Source of the DNA: Ectothiorhodospiraceae bacterium
GTDB lineage: Bacteria > Pseudomonadota > Gammaproteobacteria > Nitrococcales > Aquisalimonadaceae
Length of the DNA stretch: 43,376 nt
Assembly: GCA_020831885.1 (NCBI GenBank)
Contig: JAFIFU010000029.1
Coordinates: 1-43,376 of the forward strand
Reading direction: 5' to 3'
Shown here: in pieces, positions 2,740-32,393 of the stretch
Layout of the letters: every line of letters begins with the position of its first letter
How positions within the stretch are numbered: position 1 is the stretch's first letter
Notes under the pieces: model-generated
The model's input: only the letters and a program-made list of their open reading frames with translations
Told to the model about the DNA's origin: nothing
The model's database searches: none
Program-made: the position numbers and the translations under genes

Positions 2740-4143
2740 TCAGGCGGCACCCTCCTCTTCCAGCCGGCGGTACAGCGTGCGGCGGCTCACGTCCAGCAGG
2801 GCGGCAGCCCGTCGCTTGTTACCACCCACCTGTTCCAGCACGTAGCGGATGTAACGCTGCTCCAGTTCAGCCAGTGTCGGAAGAACCGGGCCATGGGTCA
2901 TGTCCTTCAGCAGACCGTCCACACTGGCCGTGGCAATCGGTCGCCGATCATTACCGCGAATGCGGGTGGGCAGGTGCACCAGCTCCACGGTATCGGACTG
3001 GCAGAAGGTGACCGCCCGTTCCACCGCGTTCTGCAGCTCCCGGACATTGCCCGGGAAGCTGTACAGCTTCAGCGCCGCCAGTGCCTCACTGGAAAAGCCC
3101 TCCACCTGGCGCCCCATCTGCATGCTGAAGCGGGTCAGGAAGCGGGCGGCAAGCAACTCCAGATCCTCCTCTCGCTCCCGCAACGGGGGCACGCGCAGGG
3201 TGAACGTCTCCAGCCGGTAGAACAGATCCTCGCGGAAATCCCCCGAACCGATGAGCTCCTCGAGTCCACGGTTGGTGGCGGCCACGATCCGGACATCCAC
3301 GGGATGCTCCCGGTTTCCGCCAACCGGGCGGATCATGCCATCCTGCAGGACCCGTAAGAGCTTGGCCTGCAGGGCCAGGGGCATCTCGCCGAGTTCATCG
3401 AGGAACAGCGTGCCCCCATGGGCCTGGTCGAACAGCCCGGGCTTGGCCTTGACCGCGCCGGTAAACGCTCCGGCCTCATGGCCGAAGAACTCGGATTCCA
3501 GCAGCTCGGCCGGCACACCGGCACAGTTCACCGCCTGAAAGGGTCCGTGGGCACGAGGCGATTCGTCGTGAATCGCCCGCGCCACCAGTTCCTTGCCCGT
3601 TCCGCTCTCACCGGCGATCAACACCGGACCCGAGGCCTGCGCCAGTTGACGGATCTGTTGGAACAGGGTCTGCATGGCCCGGCTCTGGCCGATCAGGCCA
3701 TGAAAATGATCTTCCTGCAGCAGGCTACGATAACGCTGCACCTCCCCGCGCAGCCGGCGGGTTTCCAACTGGCGATGCACCGACAGCAGGAAATGTTCCA
3801 GATCCAGCGGCTTGGTCAGGAAATCGTCGGCCCCGGCCTTCAACGCCTCCACCGCCTGCGGGATGGTGCCGAACCCGGTGATGATGAGAAATGCCGGCGG
3901 TTGAGGCAGTTCCCTGACATGGCGCAACAGCTCCATGCCATCCATTCCCGGAAGCCGCAGATCGCTGGCGATCAGGTCCGGCCGCACGTCCTTCAATGCC
4001 TGCAGGGCCGCTTCGGCACTGTCCACGGCGGTAACCGGGATGGTCGCGTCCTCAAGCTCCTCGGTCAGTAGCTCGCGCAACCCGCGGTCATCCTCCACCA
4101 GCAGGACGCGTTCACGCTGTCGCTTGCCCTCATTCTTCGCCAT
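2740..4143 (-). CDS. NtrC-family sigma-54-dependent response regulator
   Basis: A 467-residue activator with three domains: receiver (about 10-125, phospho-acceptor Asp61 in ASDLRLPGMDG, Lys111 in LTKPLD), AAA+ sigma-54 interaction domain (about 148-375, Walker A GESGTGKE at 178-185, GAFTGA loop at 225-230, Walker B GGTLFLDE), and a C-terminal Fis-type HTH (about 435-465, RRAAALLDVSRRTLYRRL). The intact GAFTGA means it should remodel sigma-54 RNA polymerase. The chosen ATG at 4143 overlaps the end of the kinase gene by 14 bp; an upstream in-frame extension runs antisense to nothing conserved and is rejected. The cognate kinase lies directly upstream. The likely target is the divergent DUF4168 gene, which carries a -24/-12 promoter. 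Confidence 0.93.
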   Translation of the reverse strand: MAKNEGKRQRERVLLVEDDRGLRELLTEELEDATIPVTAVDSAEAALQALKDVRPDLIASDLRLPGMDGMELLRHVRELPQPPAFLIITGFGTIPQAVEALKAGADDFLTKPLDLEHFLLSVHRQLETRRLRGEVQRYRSLLQEDHFHGLIGQSRAMQTLFQQIRQLAQASGPVLIAGESGTGKELVARAIHDESPRAHGPFQAVNCAGVPAELLESEFFGHEAGAFTGAVKAKPGLFDQAHGGTLFLDELGEMPLALQAKLLRVLQDGMIRPVGGNREHPVDVRIVAATNRGLEELIGSGDFREDLFYRLETFTLRVPPLREREEDLELLAARFLTRFSMQMGRQVEGFSSEALAALKLYSFPGNVRELQNAVERAVTFCQSDTVELVHLPTRIRGNDRRPIATASVDGLLKDMTHGPVLPTLAELEQRYIRYVLEQVGGNKRRAAALLDVSRRTLYRRLEEEGAA

Positions 4144-5620
4144 CAGTGATCTCCTCGGCGCTGCCTTCCCGTCGTCGCGCATTCGTGGGCAGGCGAACGG
4201 TGAACCGCGCGCCGCCCAGGGGGCCATCCTGAACCCGAATCTCACCGCCGTGCTCGGTGACGATACCGTGCACCACGGCCAGCCCCAGACCGGTGCCCTC
4301 GCCCACGGCCTTCGTGGTGAAGAACGGCTCGAACAGGCGCTGGCGAATACCCTGGGGAACCCCCGGGCCATCGTCATCCACCGCCAGTTCCAGCCATTCC
4401 CCACTGTCCCTCCGCCAACCGATCCGAATCCGCCGCGCACCCGCCTGGACCGCGTTGCGCATCAGGTTGACCAGCACCTGCTCCAGCCGGATGGGATCCA
4501 CGTAGAGAACCGGATCCGGCTCGCAGGGTTCCACATCCAGGTCAACGCCGTTGTCCCGGAGCGGCTGTTCCATCGCGGATTCCGCCGCCGACACCAGATC
4601 GCCCATCCGCGTCCTTCGGGTCTGGCGGTTCTGACCGCGGCCGAACTCCAGCAACTGGCGGACGATGTGCTCCATGCGGGCCACCTCCTGACGGATCTGT
4701 TGCAAGGCCCGTGCCTCCGGCCCGTCAGGCTCCACCCGCCGGAGCGCACGCTGGGCCTTGCCATCCAGCACGCTGAGCGGGGTGCCCAGCTCATGCGCCA
4801 CCCCGGAAGCCAGGCGACCGATGGCTGCCTGCTTTTCCGCCTCCCGCAACTGCTCCTCCAGGGCCAGTTGCGCATCCCGCCGCCGGGCGATCTCCTGCTC
4901 GGCCCGTGCCATGGAATCCAGCATCCGGTTCAACGCCTGGCTCAGAGAACGGATTTCTCCGGGGCCATCCTGGGGTGCCCGGTGCATTGACTCCCCGGCT
5001 TCGATTCGGGCCATGCTGGCGATCAGCCGGTCCAGGTGACGACCGATGGCGCGCCGGTGTCCCCAGAGCACCATCAGGGTGATGAGCCCCCCGGCGAAAG
5101 CCATCACCGCCACCGCCTGCAGGCGCAATTCCACCGCCAGATCCTGGAAATCGCTCCCCCGTCGGGTCACCTGCAGCAGCCCGGCGATCCGGCCGCCGCG
5201 ATCCGATAACGGCAGGAAATAGGAGTAGACGTCCTGGCCCTGGATCTGCTCGTAGGCGCCCTGTTGCTCCCCTTCGGCGGCCAACTCGGCCACCTCCCGC
5301 TTGCGCACCGACGGGTTGACCGCACCAACGGCGGCGACCAGCTCGCCCTCCACATCGTAGACATAGGCGCCGTACACGCGACCGATGCGAAACACGGACT
5401 CCAGCGCCTGACGGACGTCCTGCTCCCGCCCCTGCTCGAGACTGTCACTGATAGGCAGTCTCACCGCCCGGGCCACCAGCTCCAGCTCATCCTTCATCCG
5501 TGTCTCGGCGGAGCGTTCCAGCGTCGCCAGCCCGATGGTGGTGAACACCGCCATGGCCGCCAGCAACGGCACCAGCACCTGCAGGATCAGAGCCCAGCGC
5601 AAACTGTTTATGGGGCGCAT
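4130..5620 (-). CDS. Membrane sensor histidine kinase (HAMP-HisKA-HATPase)
   Basis: A 496-residue kinase. Transmembrane segment 1 (about 10-32), periplasmic sensor region (about 33-165), transmembrane segment 2 (about 167-187), HAMP linker (about 188-245), short coiled coil, H-box with phospho-accepting His276 in VAHELGTPLS, N-box around Asn389 in NLMRNAVQAGA, G1 DDDGPGVP (about 415-422) and G2 GEGTGLGLAVVHG (about 440-452). No PAS domain is evident. The signal sensed is unknown. ATG 5620 was chosen over an upstream in-frame ATG at 5689 because it has CCAGGAGCG ahead and puts the first membrane segment at the expected place. It is translationally coupled to the response regulator. Confidence 0.92.
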   Translation of the reverse strand: MRPINSLRWALILQVLVPLLAAMAVFTTIGLATLERSAETRMKDELELVARAVRLPISDSLEQGREQDVRQALESVFRIGRVYGAYVYDVEGELVAAVGAVNPSVRKREVAELAAEGEQQGAYEQIQGQDVYSYFLPLSDRGGRIAGLLQVTRRGSDFQDLAVELRLQAVAVMAFAGGLITLMVLWGHRRAIGRHLDRLIASMARIEAGESMHRAPQDGPGEIRSLSQALNRMLDSMARAEQEIARRRDAQLALEEQLREAEKQAAIGRLASGVAHELGTPLSVLDGKAQRALRRVEPDGPEARALQQIRQEVARMEHIVRQLLEFGRGQNRQTRRTRMGDLVSAAESAMEQPLRDNGVDLDVEPCEPDPVLYVDPIRLEQVLVNLMRNAVQAGARRIRIGWRRDSGEWLELAVDDDGPGVPQGIRQRLFEPFFTTKAVGEGTGLGLAVVHGIVTEHGGEIRVQDGPLGGARFTVRLPTNARRREGSAEEITDGEE

Positions 5621-19807: not shown

Positions 19808-21439
19808 ATGCGTGGACTCATGATGGACCGGCCCCTGATGATTTCCCAGATCATCGAGTTTGCGGCCATGAACTTTCCCGATCAGGAGATCGTGTCGCGC
19901 ACCACGGAAGGTCCGATACACCGCTACACCTATCCGGAGCTGGCGAAGCGCTCACGGCAGCTTGCCAACGCGCTGGAAAAACTGGGCGCACAGCCGGAAG
20001 ACCGCATCGGCACCATCGCCTGGAACACATACCGGCACCTGGAGATTTACTACGCCACATCGGGCATGGGCGCCATTTGCCACACGATGAATCCGCGCCT
20101 CCCGGCCGACCAGCTTATCTACATCGTCAACCATGCGAAGGATCGCTTCATCTTCGTCGACCTCACCTTCCTGCCGCTGCTGGAGAAGCTGCACGAGCAC
20201 TTCCCCGACGTGGAGGGCTTCGTGGTGATGACCGACGAGGCCAACATGCCGAAGACGGACCTGCCCCGGGTGCACTGCTACGAGACGCTGATCAAGGATC
20301 AGCCGGGCACGTACGCCTGGCCTGAGTTCGACGAGCATACCGCCTCGTCCATGTGCTACACGTCCGGCACCACCGGCAATCCGAAGGGCGTGCTGTACAG
20401 CCACCGTTCCACGGTGTTGCATGCGCTCTACGTGCTGAGCCTCTCCGGAGTGCCGATCAACGAGGATTCCTCCATCCTGCCGGTGGTTCCCATGTTCCAC
20501 GTGAACGCCTGGGGCTCGCCCTACTTCGGCCTGATTGCCGGCGCCAAGCTGGTTTTCCCCGGACCGAAGCTGGACGGCCCCAGCCTGGCGGAGCTGATCG
20601 AAGAGGAACAGGTAACGGACGCCTGGGGGGTGCCCACGGTATGGCTGGGGCTGCTGGGCCATATGCGCCAGCAGGGCAAGACCTTCAGCTCCTTGAAGCG
20701 CACACTGATCGGCGGCTCGGCCTTGCCGCGGGCGATGATCACGGAATTCCGGGAAAAGCATGGCGTTGAAGCCATCCAGGGTTGGGGCATGACGGAGATG
20801 AGCCCGCTGGGCACGGTCGCCGTTCCGCGGCCATCCATGCGCGGCGACTGGGACAGGGAGCTGGATATCCGCGGCAAACAGGGCCGCCTGATGTTCGGCG
20901 TGGAAATGAAAATCGTGGATGCTGACGGCAACGCGCTGCCCCACGACGGCAAGAGCCAGGGGGAACTGCTGGTGCGCGGAAACGCGGTGATCAACGGTTA
21001 CTATGAGAACGAAGAGGCCACTGCCAAGGCGTTCAGTGAGGACGGCTGGTTCCGCACCGGCGATGTGTCCACCATCGACCCGGACGGTTACATGGAGATC
21101 GTGGACCGGGTCAAGGACGTGATCAAATCCGGCGGCGAATGGATCAGTTCCATTGACCTGGAGAACGAGGCGGTGGCCCACCCGGAGGTGGCAGAAGCGG
21201 CGGTGATCGGCGTGAGGCACGCCAAATGGCAGGAACGCCCGCTGCTGATTGTGGTCCGCGAGCAGGGCTCCTCGGTCGGGAAGGACCAGTTGCTGCAGTT
21301 CCTGGAGGAGCGGGTGGCCAAGTGGTGGCTGCCGGACGACGTGGTGTTCGTCGATGAACTGCCCCATGGTGCCACCGGTAAGTTGCAGAAGGCCAAGCTG
21401 CGCGAGCAGTTCAAGGACTACAAGCTGCCCACCGAGTGA
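19808..21439 (+). CDS. AlkK-type medium/long-chain acyl-CoA ligase
   Basis: A 543-residue AMP-forming acyl-CoA synthetase. The AMP-binding P-loop is [18 protein letters not shown] (about 182-199), with [12 protein letters not shown] (about 322-333), the WFRTGD motif and [12 protein letters not shown] hinge block, and the catalytic lysine in [12 protein letters not shown] near the C-terminus. This combination fits the AlkK/FadD13-like group that activates fatty acids to acyl-CoA for beta-oxidation. The ATG is preceded by GAGGAGGAGCCA. It is followed by a strong hairpin, so it looks monocistronic. Confidence 0.9.
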
Positions 21440-21448
21440 ATCGGTGGC

Positions 21449-21478
21449 GAGCTACGGCCGCCCTTCCGGCCGTAGCTC
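21449..21478 (+). terminator. Strong hairpin after the acyl-CoA ligase gene
   Basis: A perfect 12-bp stem (GAGCTACGGCCG / CGGCCGTAGCTC) with loop CCCTTC begins 10 nt after the stop codon. There is no T tract, so termination may be inefficient or Rho-assisted; it could also be part of the adjacent dispersed repeat region. Confidence 0.55.
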
Positions 21479-21492
21479 GTCACGCTGGACGG

Positions 21493-21613
21493 GCCCTTCG
21501 AGCACGCTGAGCGGCCTTGGCGTTCTTGACAAGAACCACGGCCGTTGCCTGCGAACGCCGCCTTGTCAGCCCGCTCGAAGGGCTCCGCAGAGCACGTGGG
21601 AATAGACCAGCGC
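21493..21613 (-). repeat. ERIC-like imperfect palindromic element, copy A
   Basis: A 91-bp core (21493-21583) bounded by perfect 11-bp inverted ends GCCCTTCGAGC/GCTCGAAGGGC. Internal complementary segments are GGCGTTC/GAACGCC, GCTGA/TCAGC and a central ACGGCCGT. Read on the minus strand it aligns without gaps to 32239-32329 (75 of 91 identical by my count). Similarity continues about 30 bp past the 21583 end. It is intergenic, between the ligase and permease genes. Confidence 0.8.
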
Positions 21614-21702
21614 TTCCTTAAGGTTCGCAGCGTCGCCGAATCCGGCATCACACCTCCTAGGCACGGTCCGGCATCGCCGATTCCTTCCCGGGGGAACACG
21701 CA

Positions 21703-26158: not shown

Positions 26159-26331
26159 GGGCTGCACCTGTCAGGGCTTGCTGCTGTGACCCGCAAACGG
26201 GTACCGGGGTTCAGCCGAAAGTGCCCCAACCCGGAGCAGTTCCCCGCAGACCGGGGCCCACGGGCGTGTTCACCGGACGCGGTACACGGACAGGATGGAT
26301 CGGATAGAGCCACCCAAGGCCGGGTAGAGGG

Positions 26332-26415
26332 CGGGGTTGCCCCGGCTTGTCGGCCGCAGGGCCGCGGCCGACAAGCCTACATGAATGTATTCACGGCGTG
26401 TCCGGGGCAACCCCG
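26332..26415 (-). repeat. REP-like nested palindrome
   Basis: Inner hairpin 26344-26377: a perfect 14-bp stem (GGCTTGTCGGCCGC / GCGGCCGACAAGCC) with a 6-nt loop. Outer arms 26332-26345 and 26402-26415 (CGGGGTTGCCCCGG / CCGGGGCAACCCCG) are complementary. The right outer arm lies inside the 3' end of the thioesterase gene. On the minus strand the inner stem is preceded by GTAG, as in REP elements. Confidence 0.6.
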
Positions 26416-26861
26416 TCCTCTCCCTGACCGGTTTGAAGCCGCTCCAGCGCCTGCCGGATACCAGCAGGGATCTGCACCGGAGCGTTCTTCGACCGATCCA
26501 CGAACACATGAACGAACTGCCCGAAGGCACAGACCTCGTCATCGCCCTCCAGGAAGATGCCCACGCCGTATTGCACCGAGCTGTTACCCAATCTGTCCAC
26601 TTTAAGGCCCGCCTCGATACGATCGGGAAAGGCGATACCCCGACGGTAGGTGCAACTGGAATTGACCACGAAACCCACTATGGATCCTGCATGGATATCC
26701 AGACCGCCGTGCTCAATGAGATAGGCGTTCACCACCGTGTCGAAGTAACTGTAATAGGTGACGTTGTTCACGTGACCGTAAAGGTCGTTGTCCATCCAGC
26801 GGGTGGTGATGGACTGAAAGTGCCGGTACTCACCGCGGGATGGAATCTCCAGCTCACTCAT
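26391..26861 (-). CDS. 4HBT-fold acyl-CoA thioesterase
   Basis: A 156-residue hot-dog fold thioesterase of the 4HBT/YbgC-like group. The catalytic block is RWMDNDLYGHVNNVTYYSYFD (about 22-42), with the Asp after RWMDND in the position of the 4HBT nucleophile/base. The acyl substrate is unknown. The C-terminal end (DGVAPDTP) is encoded by the right arm of a REP-like palindrome, suggesting that the element altered the 3' end. The amidase gene lies 36 bp upstream on the same strand. Confidence 0.88.
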   Translation of the reverse strand: MSELEIPSRGEYRHFQSITTRWMDNDLYGHVNNVTYYSYFDTVVNAYLIEHGGLDIHAGSIVGFVVNSSCTYRRGIAFPDRIEAGLKVDRLGNSSVQYGVGIFLEGDDEVCAFGQFVHVFVDRSKNAPVQIPAGIRQALERLQTGQGEDGVAPDTP

Positions 26862-32167: not shown

Positions 32168-32207
32168 GCACTCTGTCTGTCCAGTGTACCGTGTCGCGCT
32201 TGGGGAC

Positions 32208-32329
32208 GCGCTGATCGATTCCCCGGGTGTTCCGCGGAGCCATTCGAGTGCGCTGACAAGTCGGCGTTCCCGGGCAATGGCCAGGATCGTTGTCAAGAAC
32301 GCCAACACAGCTCAGCGTGCTCGAATGGC
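32208..32329 (+). repeat. ERIC-like imperfect palindromic element, copy B
   Basis: The 91-bp core (32239-32329) is bounded by perfect 10-bp inverted ends GCCATTCGAG/CTCGAATGGC and shares GGCGTTC/GAACGCC, CGCTGA/TCAGCG and a central TGGCCA with copy A at 21493-21583, in the opposite orientation. Changes at arm positions 4/88 (C-G to A-T) and 40/45 (C-G to T-A) preserve pairing. It fills most of the 327-bp gap between the divergent queC and bactofilin genes; the rest of that gap holds only candidate promoters. Confidence 0.8.
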
Positions 32330-32393
32330 CTGCCCTCCCGGACGGTCAGGCTGTCGTCTGGCGGCAACAGATTCCATTACTCGGGAACATTCC

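What the first reader, a model, noticed from the sequence alone, without database searches (positions are those of the whole stretch)
21493..21583. Dispersed 91-bp imperfect palindrome (copy A) with conserved structure
The interval 21493-21583 on the minus strand aligns without gaps to 32239-32329 on the plus strand, with 75 of 91 positions identical by my count. Both are bounded by perfect inverted ends, share inner complementary segments, and lie in intergenic DNA. Length, palindromy and intergenic location resemble ERIC elements. The arm bases differ in compensating ways (position pair 4/88: C-G in this copy, A-T in the other; pair 40/45: C-G versus T-A), which suggests that the folded form is selected. 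No transposase gene is present, so the element may be mobilised in trans. It does not match any repeat I recognise.
Basis: partly seen in the sequence, partly recalled or inferred. Interest (0 to 1): 0.75.

Follow-up and report, generated by a model that had tools for sequence, protein, structure and literature searches.

The report
Structured two-armed IS5-type mobile repeat
The two similar palindromes are worn fragments of a small parasitic DNA element, present in roughly a hundred or more places in this genome, that was probably spread by a borrowed transposase and whose folded, two-armed shape has been kept in related bacteria even as its sequence changed.

Summary
In detail: 75 of 91 positions match. 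But the interval is one arm of a larger element. The full form is 263 bp: 31-bp terminal inverted repeats, two inverted ~97-bp hairpin arms and a tiny central hairpin, between 4-bp YTAR target duplications. The genome has 223 end matches, reversed control 0. Both window copies are one-ended relics, 21487-21617 and 32204-32336. The ends match a 1202-bp IS5-family insertion sequence, intact in two relatives; here only a relic was found. Empty sites exist in relatives. So it is a MITE, most likely moved in trans. Between genera, covariation is strong: 23 of 39 pairs changed on both sides, while internal loops stay about 95% conserved. A model built without the window's genus ranks these two loci first, E 9e-14 and 2.7e-10. 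The same body also occurs with other ends. Verdict: a new, structure-conserved MITE family; what the fold does is inferred, not shown.

The parts
21487..21617 (-). Copy A: one-ended relic of the element (one terminal inverted repeat plus one complete hairpin arm; the other arm and end are missing)
   Evidence: BLAST to the full 263-bp element covers 21487-21617; TIR end at 21617
21587..21617 (-). 31-bp terminal inverted repeat of copy A
   Evidence: first 21 bp match GGAAGCRCTGATCNATTCCCA with at most 4 mismatches; sequence; 31-bp length by analogy with full copies
21618..21621 (.). TTAA next to the outer end: a YTAR tetramer like the target duplications of complete copies
   Evidence: sequence, tabulated; it has no partner because the other end is lost
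21489..21588 (-).
   Evidence: covariance model from other genera, 73.5 bits, E 9e-14
32204..32336 (+). Copy B: one-ended relic (one terminal inverted repeat plus one complete hairpin arm)
   Evidence: TIR start 32204; BLAST to the full element 32211-32336
32204..32234 (+). 31-bp terminal inverted repeat of copy B; its outer flank TTGG is not YTAR
   Evidence: 31-bp length by analogy with full copies
32234..32333 (+). Hairpin arm of copy B (contains the matching 91-bp interval)
   Evidence: covariance model from other genera, 57.5 bits, E 2.7e-10

Best explanation
A MITE family (non-autonomous transposon) moved in trans by an IS5-family, IS5-group-like DDE transposase that recognises about 15-18 bp at the ends, inserts at YTAR and duplicates those 4 bp. 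The 263-bp full element is two ~97-bp hairpin arms in opposite orientation with a tiny hairpin between them, closed by 31-bp terminal repeats. The window's two copies are old fragments, each with one end and one arm. Shown: copy number, ends, target duplications, empty sites, an intact IS with matching ends in relatives, only a relic of it found in this genome, and between-genus covariation of stems around conserved internal loops. Inferred: that this transposase acted on these ends, that transposition has stopped here, and that the fold was kept because only folding copies amplify (as single-stranded DNA or RNA). I put about 0.6 on selection for the fold and about 0.4 on its role being in the element's own spread.
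For: 223 end matches in 4.13 Mb, 0 for the reversed control. In 213 kb of own-genome stretches taken around listed matches: 145 ends, 25 paired elements. Of 24 paired elements with both flanks, 12 have identical tetramers and 33 of 48 flanks are YTAR, against 0.8% and 0.14% at random places. Empty sites: the element at C59:32720 is absent from G001, which has one copy of the target; the element at C109:3115 is absent from G001 and G002. IS of 1202 bp with matching ends; all 10 flanks of its 5 copies are YTAR; its 327-aa transposase matches NF033581 (E 5e-102) and PF01609; 1 intact gene in G002, 4 in G007, residues 1-56 only in the window's genome. Two-armed elements read in 14 genomes of the order. 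Covariation score 0.415 against 0.151 in shuffles and at most 0.154 when slid; 0.445 against 0.158 and at most 0.143. First arm type: paired outer-stem columns 65% conserved, inner paired 83%, internal loops 95%; second type 71%, 90%, 93%. An independent model finds both window copies.
Against: Element and IS share only 15-18 bp at the ends, so the link is by ends and target, not by descent of the body; another transposase with similar ends could have done it. No intact transposase was found in this genome, but the assembly breaks at many copies, so a hidden one cannot be excluded. Half of the paired elements lack identical tetramers. Within the genus, arm mismatches are common, so most resident copies are not held to the fold. 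The terminal loops of the arms are not conserved (74% and 66%). At the window's own two sites no precise empty site was obtained.
Confidence: 0.85

Rival explanations
1. The stems stay complementary only because palindromes correct themselves during replication (template switching copies one arm onto the other); the fold has no function and the element is an ordinary MITE.
For: Long near-perfect stems are what such correction would produce. Terminal loops drift. No function was shown.
Against: Non-complementary internal loops are kept in the same places and are the best conserved columns (95% and 93%); correction would tend to erase them. If correction were efficient, 7 of 16 unpaired cells at pair 4/90 should not persist.
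Confidence: 0.25
2. The body is a structured non-coding RNA (for example mRNA-stabilising, terminating or regulatory) that benefits hosts or the element, and transposon ends are only its vehicle.
For: Conserved internal loops with variable helices. G-T wobbles exceed A-C mismatches in the CAAGGCG orientation (79 to 24 over alignments A3 and A4), and 24 of 28 arms fold better on that strand.
Against: The two arms are in opposite orientation, so one transcript holds only one arm in the better orientation. The wobble count is biased, because the structure was taken from that strand. No Rfam match. No expression data.
Confidence: 0.3
3. An ERIC- or REP-type extragenic palindrome.
For: Palindromic, high copy number, and both window copies lie between genes.
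Against: Full length 263 bp, IS5-type ends, YTAR duplication, an IS with the same ends.
Confidence: 0.03
4. An internal-deletion derivative of the IS itself.
For: Same ends and same target duplication.
Against: Beyond the terminal 15-18 bp no convincing similarity to either IS (BLAST rows of at most 15 bases, best E 0.46); the same body occurs with at least two other kinds of ends.
Confidence: 0.05

Closest known systems
Prokaryotic MITEs in general (reviews PMC10969869 and PMC2229807, passages seen)
   Same: Short, terminal inverted repeats, target duplication, no transposase gene, stable predicted fold, thought to move in trans.
   Different: The passages describe AT-rich elements whose transcripts form long stem-loops closed by pairing of the two ends. 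Here the element is GC-rich, two arms and a mini-hairpin sit on the terminal stem, and the body is conserved across genera and with different ends.
IS5 family, IS5 group (group name and its YTAR rule are recalled)
   Same: The IS with matching ends is 1202 bp, has a transposase matching NF033581 and YTAR flanks.
   Different: The element carries no transposase and shares only the terminal 15-18 bp.
CIR repeats of Caulobacter and Brucella (PMC2229807, passage seen)
   Same: Two long inverted-repeat arms joined by a linker, with phylogenetically conserved structure.
   Different: By the passage CIRs differ from other repeats in lacking the stem that pairs the two ends; here a 31-bp terminal stem with transposon ends encloses the arms.
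ERIC / RU-1 (127 bp; abstract of PMC2759123 in a search listing)
   Same: Dispersed palindrome of gammaproteobacteria.
   Different: Length, ends and target duplication differ.
Rickettsia palindromic elements (PMC2229807, passage seen; in-frame insertion recalled)
   Same: Palindromic; one copy here (C59) lies in frame near a gene start.
   Different: That is one case among the 25 paired elements examined, not the rule.

Membership tests
MITE | terminal inverted repeats | tested here: met
   31-bp terminal stem in full copies
MITE | target-site duplication | tested here: met
   12 of 24 paired elements identical, 33 of 48 flanks YTAR; single target in two empty sites
MITE | no transposase gene inside | tested here: met
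   263 bp; an open frame through it exists in some copies but is too short and too variable for a transposase
MITE | autonomous element with the same ends | tested here: met
   intact in relatives G002 and G007; only a relic found in the window's genome
MITE | actual mobilisation by that transposase | not testable with these tools
   needs an experiment
IS5 family (the IS with matching ends) | IS5-family DDE transposase | tested here: met
   NF033581 E 5.1e-102, 341 bits against a cut-off of 140; PF01609, PF05598
IS5 family (the IS with matching ends) | 4-bp YTAR duplication | tested here: met
   3 of 5 copies identical on both sides (L197 TTAG, L211 CTAA, L215 TTAG), the other 2 differ by one letter (L204 CTAA/CTAG, L196 CTAG/CTAA); all 10 flanks YTAR
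ERIC | unit of about 127 bp | tested here: not met
   natural unit is 263 bp; ERIC length from the abstract of PMC2759123; the ERIC sequence itself was not compared
REP/REPIN with RAYT | REP tags and a RAYT transposase | not tested
   no search made
Known RNA family (Rfam 15) | covariance-model match | tested here: not met
   0 gathering matches in the window; 4 rows at E 0.23-0.89, all below the gathering score, in six element loci
CIR | two arms without a terminal stem | tested here: not met
   31-bp terminal stem present

The most novel reading that the evidence does not exclude
The two-armed body is a functional structured nucleic acid, folding as single-stranded DNA or RNA and kept by selection across an order of bacteria, which exchanges transposon ends and so rides on different insertion sequences: a structural parasite whose fold, not its sequence, is inherited and needed for its spread.
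Probability: 0.35. Interest if true: 0.85.

Novelty: new variant of a known kind. Interest (0 to 1): 0.62.

Why it matters
MITEs are usually treated as passive leftovers of an IS. Here the non-coding body outlives its ends: its length (255-271 bp in the full copies read, one of 299), two-armed fold and internal loops persist between genera while stem sequences and even terminal repeats change. That makes it directly testable whether a bacterial MITE can be selected for its fold, and what the fold does in transposition or in transcripts. It also breaks assemblies: 26 of the 258 contig ends of this genome lie within 170 bp of a terminal repeat (counted by hand and the contig lengths listed).

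Tried and rejected
Rejected: the 91-bp interval as a natural unit; compensating changes within the genus as proof of selection; ERIC; an internal-deletion product of the IS; a known RNA family. Left open: an in-frame, RPE-like coding role. Frames +1 and -1 are open in the three 263-bp copies of this genome, but L168 of another species has a stop in both and other copies vary, so no claim is made.

Led nowhere: a plasmid and a phage search with a full element of another genus (no match) and one exact-pattern scan of viral contigs (0). Paper searches: searches returned no paper; one search returned one, whose only hit is in its reference list; some searches returned listings in which no title or abstract start describes this element. 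The library holds open-licence papers only. Precise empty sites at the window's own two loci were not obtained: G002 has no terminal repeat (up to 6 mismatches) and no arm (best E 0.23) there, but its intergenic DNA is too diverged to define a junction; G001 has a contig break at site A, with a short GC-rich hairpin at the end of C172 (36 bases, E 0.0006, both strands), and lost synteny at site B. Script 48 stopped with an error after printing the 75 of 91 count and script 85 after part of its output; the unfinished parts were redone.

Rows dropped and choices: one search leaves out 5 of 29 elements of other genera (L393, L394, L395, L430, whose ends belong to a longer repeat, and L416). Alignments A3 and A4 use 28 of the 69 arms listed, chosen by hand to represent genomes and variants; A5 uses 13. 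The empty-site search used 11 of the 24 paired elements with both flanks, the 11 that have identical tetramers and were chosen from the 12 such. The control used 20 of the 80 loci. Many genome search listings were capped ('more matches are not listed'), and only 40 or 14 candidates per genome were scored, so counts from them are lower bounds.

Full report
OBSERVATION. Copy A (21493-21583, minus strand) and copy B (32239-32329, plus strand) are identical at 75 of 91 positions without gaps. Both fold better than all 200 dinucleotide shuffles. BLAST of copy A in the window's own genome (G000; the window is contig C57 of 129, 4.13 Mb) lists 45 matches, 40 of them below 1e-7, itself included. The similarity of A and B continues beyond 91 bp on one side.

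THE REAL UNIT. As RNA the full copy L009 folds at -178 kcal/mol (z -15.2), as DNA at -111.7 (z -14.5), with 0 of 200 shuffles as good. Shorter paired forms (63-205 bp) look like internal deletions or hybrids of the two arms (read). The window copies keep one end and one arm each: 21487-21617 and 32204-32336. A lies between an AMP-binding enzyme gene (stop at 21439) and a permease gene (start 21703); B lies between queC and a bactofilin gene.

COPY NUMBER AND TARGET. The end pattern with up to 3 mismatches has 223 matches in G000 and none for the reversed control. In the 213 kb of stretches that I held around listed matches there are 145 ends (up to 4 mismatches): 25 paired elements and 95 single ends; by my own rough estimate one or two of these are expected by chance. 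Of 24 paired elements with both flanks, 12 have identical flanking tetramers, 18 differ by at most one letter, and 33 of 48 flanks are YTAR; at random places identical tetramers are 0.8% and YTAR 0.14%. In 24 elements of other genera (5 of 29 dropped) the figures are 12, 21 and 31 of 48.

EMPTY SITES. Joined flanks of 11 insertions were searched in the genus. Matches that cross the junction were listed for 3 of 11: C59:32720 in G001, C109:3115 in G001 and G002, C27:129262 in G001. My alignments show the first two cleanly, with a single target (CCAA for CTAA; TATAAA); for the third they covered only 24 bases, so it rests on the BLAST row. For two more, matches on both sides leave too little room for a full element in G001: C27:141270 (119 bases against 98 in the joined query, element 169) and C107:90057 (189 against 138, element 159). 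For the other 6 the listed rows do not decide. At the window's own sites G002 shows no element, without a definable junction.

THE IS WITH THE SAME ENDS. The window's genome has no PF01609 match. Two relatives have a 1202-bp IS with ends such as GGAAACGCTGATTTATTCGCC and GGAAGCGCTGATCTAATGCC and YTAR flanks: G002 (1 copy, same genus, at a contig end) and G007 (4 copies, same family). The 327-aa transposase is NF033581 'IS5 family' (E 5e-102) with PF01609 and PF05598; its nearest plasmid relatives are 72% identical and annotated IS5 family (capped at 5000 records). With this protein 6 of 14 genomes of the family match; the window's genome has only residues 1-56 (79% identity), next to one IS end, after which the similarity stops. 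Element and IS are alike only over the terminal 15-18 bp. G002 is probably the MAG 'Ectothiorhodospiraceae bacterium coassembly_bin.70', because its contig with the queC region has the same length, 100,686 bp, as JAFIFV010000129.1; this is an inference.

DISTRIBUTION. End pattern: 3 of 3 genomes of the genus, 5 of 14 of the family, 9 of 54 of the order (two of these with one match each). A full element of another genus (G037) matches 21 of 54 genomes of the order at E <= 0.001, 12 of 17 genera. Two of these (G023, G043) are single rows at E 5e-4 and 7e-4. In the rows listed, G008-G011 match only over part of one arm, yet G008, G009 and G010 carry whole two-armed elements when read. I read two-armed elements in 14 genomes: G000, G001, G002, G003, G007, G008, G009, G010, G012, G014, G031, G032, G037, G053 (the output was cut). 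Full lengths are 255-271 bp, except 299 in G014.

FOLD. Within the genus, 16 complete arms (12 from G000) give weak evidence. Pair 4/90 is paired in 9 and unpaired in 7; 7.75 are expected with independent sides. Pair 9/85 is paired in 11 against 7.25 expected. The covariation score is 0.085, against 0.072 in shuffles (13 of 500 as high) and at most 0.031 when slid; the RNAalifold covariation term is +0.11. Eleven arms of the second type from 7 genomes give 21 of 38, 0.445, 0.158 and 0.143. The shuffles do not control for relatedness, the slides do; the structure came from one of the sequences, which favours it somewhat. In the first type, paired outer-stem columns are 65% conserved, inner paired columns 83%, internal-loop columns 95% and the terminal loop 74%; in the second 71%, 90%, 93% and 66%. 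Internal loops are kept while outer helices drift in sequence, which self-correcting palindromes would not be expected to give. A covariance model from 13 arms of other genera ranks the two window copies first and second in the window (9e-14, 2.7e-10); next comes a different palindrome at 26324-26423 (0.004). In 20 queC regions, 409 kb, one from G002 and the rest mostly from Alphaproteobacteria by their titles, its best is 0.14.

DIFFERENT ENDS. In G012 the body sits between TGTCCCGAAACAGAAGTTCG repeats and CTAG/CTAG flanks (261 bp). In G032 it sits between repeats that contain GTGCCCGCCCTATTTAGCGC (258 bp with them), with TTAG and CTAG four bases further out. Model R1 finds both arms in each. 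In G037 five further copies share longer flanks; four of them compared with each other lie in a palindromic repeat of about 455 bp. So the body is not tied to one set of ends. For these other ends no IS was looked for.

MECHANISM. Most likely the element moved as a MITE: IS5-group-like transposase in trans, YTAR target, 4-bp duplication. In this genome only a relic of such a transposase was found, so movement has probably stopped. The fold is probably under selection in the copies that amplify, with decay afterwards; this would reconcile poor pairing among resident copies with strong covariation between genera. Whether the fold works as single-stranded DNA in transposition or as RNA is open; G-T wobbles exceed A-C mismatches in one orientation, but that count is biased by how the structure was chosen.

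LITERATURE. Reviews seen in passages (PMC10969869; PMC2229807) describe stem-loop MITEs closed by end-to-end pairing and, for CIR repeats, two arms without it. Searches for papers with MITE and three-way junction, Halorhodospira, Alkalilimnicola, or IS5 with covariation returned none; the library holds open-licence papers only.

CHANGES ON CHECKING. Confidence in the main reading was set from 0.87 to 0.85, because the terminal loops proved variable and no IS was sought for the other kinds of ends.

Noticed in passing
window 26318-26429: A second, different palindromic repeat (GGCTTGTCGGCCGC...GCGGCCGACAAGCCTACA..GATGTATTCACGGCGTGTCC): ten places listed in G001, one each in other parts of G000 and in G002 (capped list); weak match to model R1 on both strands. 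I recall the motif from other gammaproteobacteria; untested.
   Followed up: partly
G000 C59:32720-32982 (L009 1364-1626): A full element inserted near the start of an AMP-binding-like gene: 263 + 4 = 267 bp = 89 codons without a stop in the gene's frame; G001 has the uninterrupted start.
   Followed up: partly
G000 C27:147935-148197 (L010): The ATG in the terminal repeat lies in frame with a downstream open frame that begins like a signal peptide; the element may supply a start codon.
   Followed up: no
window 21444-21483: Strong hairpin (CGAGCTACGGCCG...CGGCCGTAGCTCG) right after the AMP-binding gene stop, terminator-like but without a T run.
   Followed up: no
G000, 26 contig ends: Terminal repeats lie within 170 bp of 26 of 258 contig ends, so the element breaks the assembly and true copy number may be higher (counted by hand).
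   Followed up: partly
G037 C1, e.g. L431 about 2869-3320: A palindromic repeat of about 455 bp contains the same two-armed body with other flanks; what moves it is unknown.
   Followed up: partly
L413 (G014 C76): A 299-bp variant with a tandemly repeated GGCAAGGCGCGCTCCGCA inner segment.
   Followed up: no
G000 C54:4438-4605 (L345): Truncated left end of the IS (residues 1-56 of the transposase) behind a TTTAGGGAAATGCTGATTTATTCGCC end; what cut it was not identified.
   Followed up: partly
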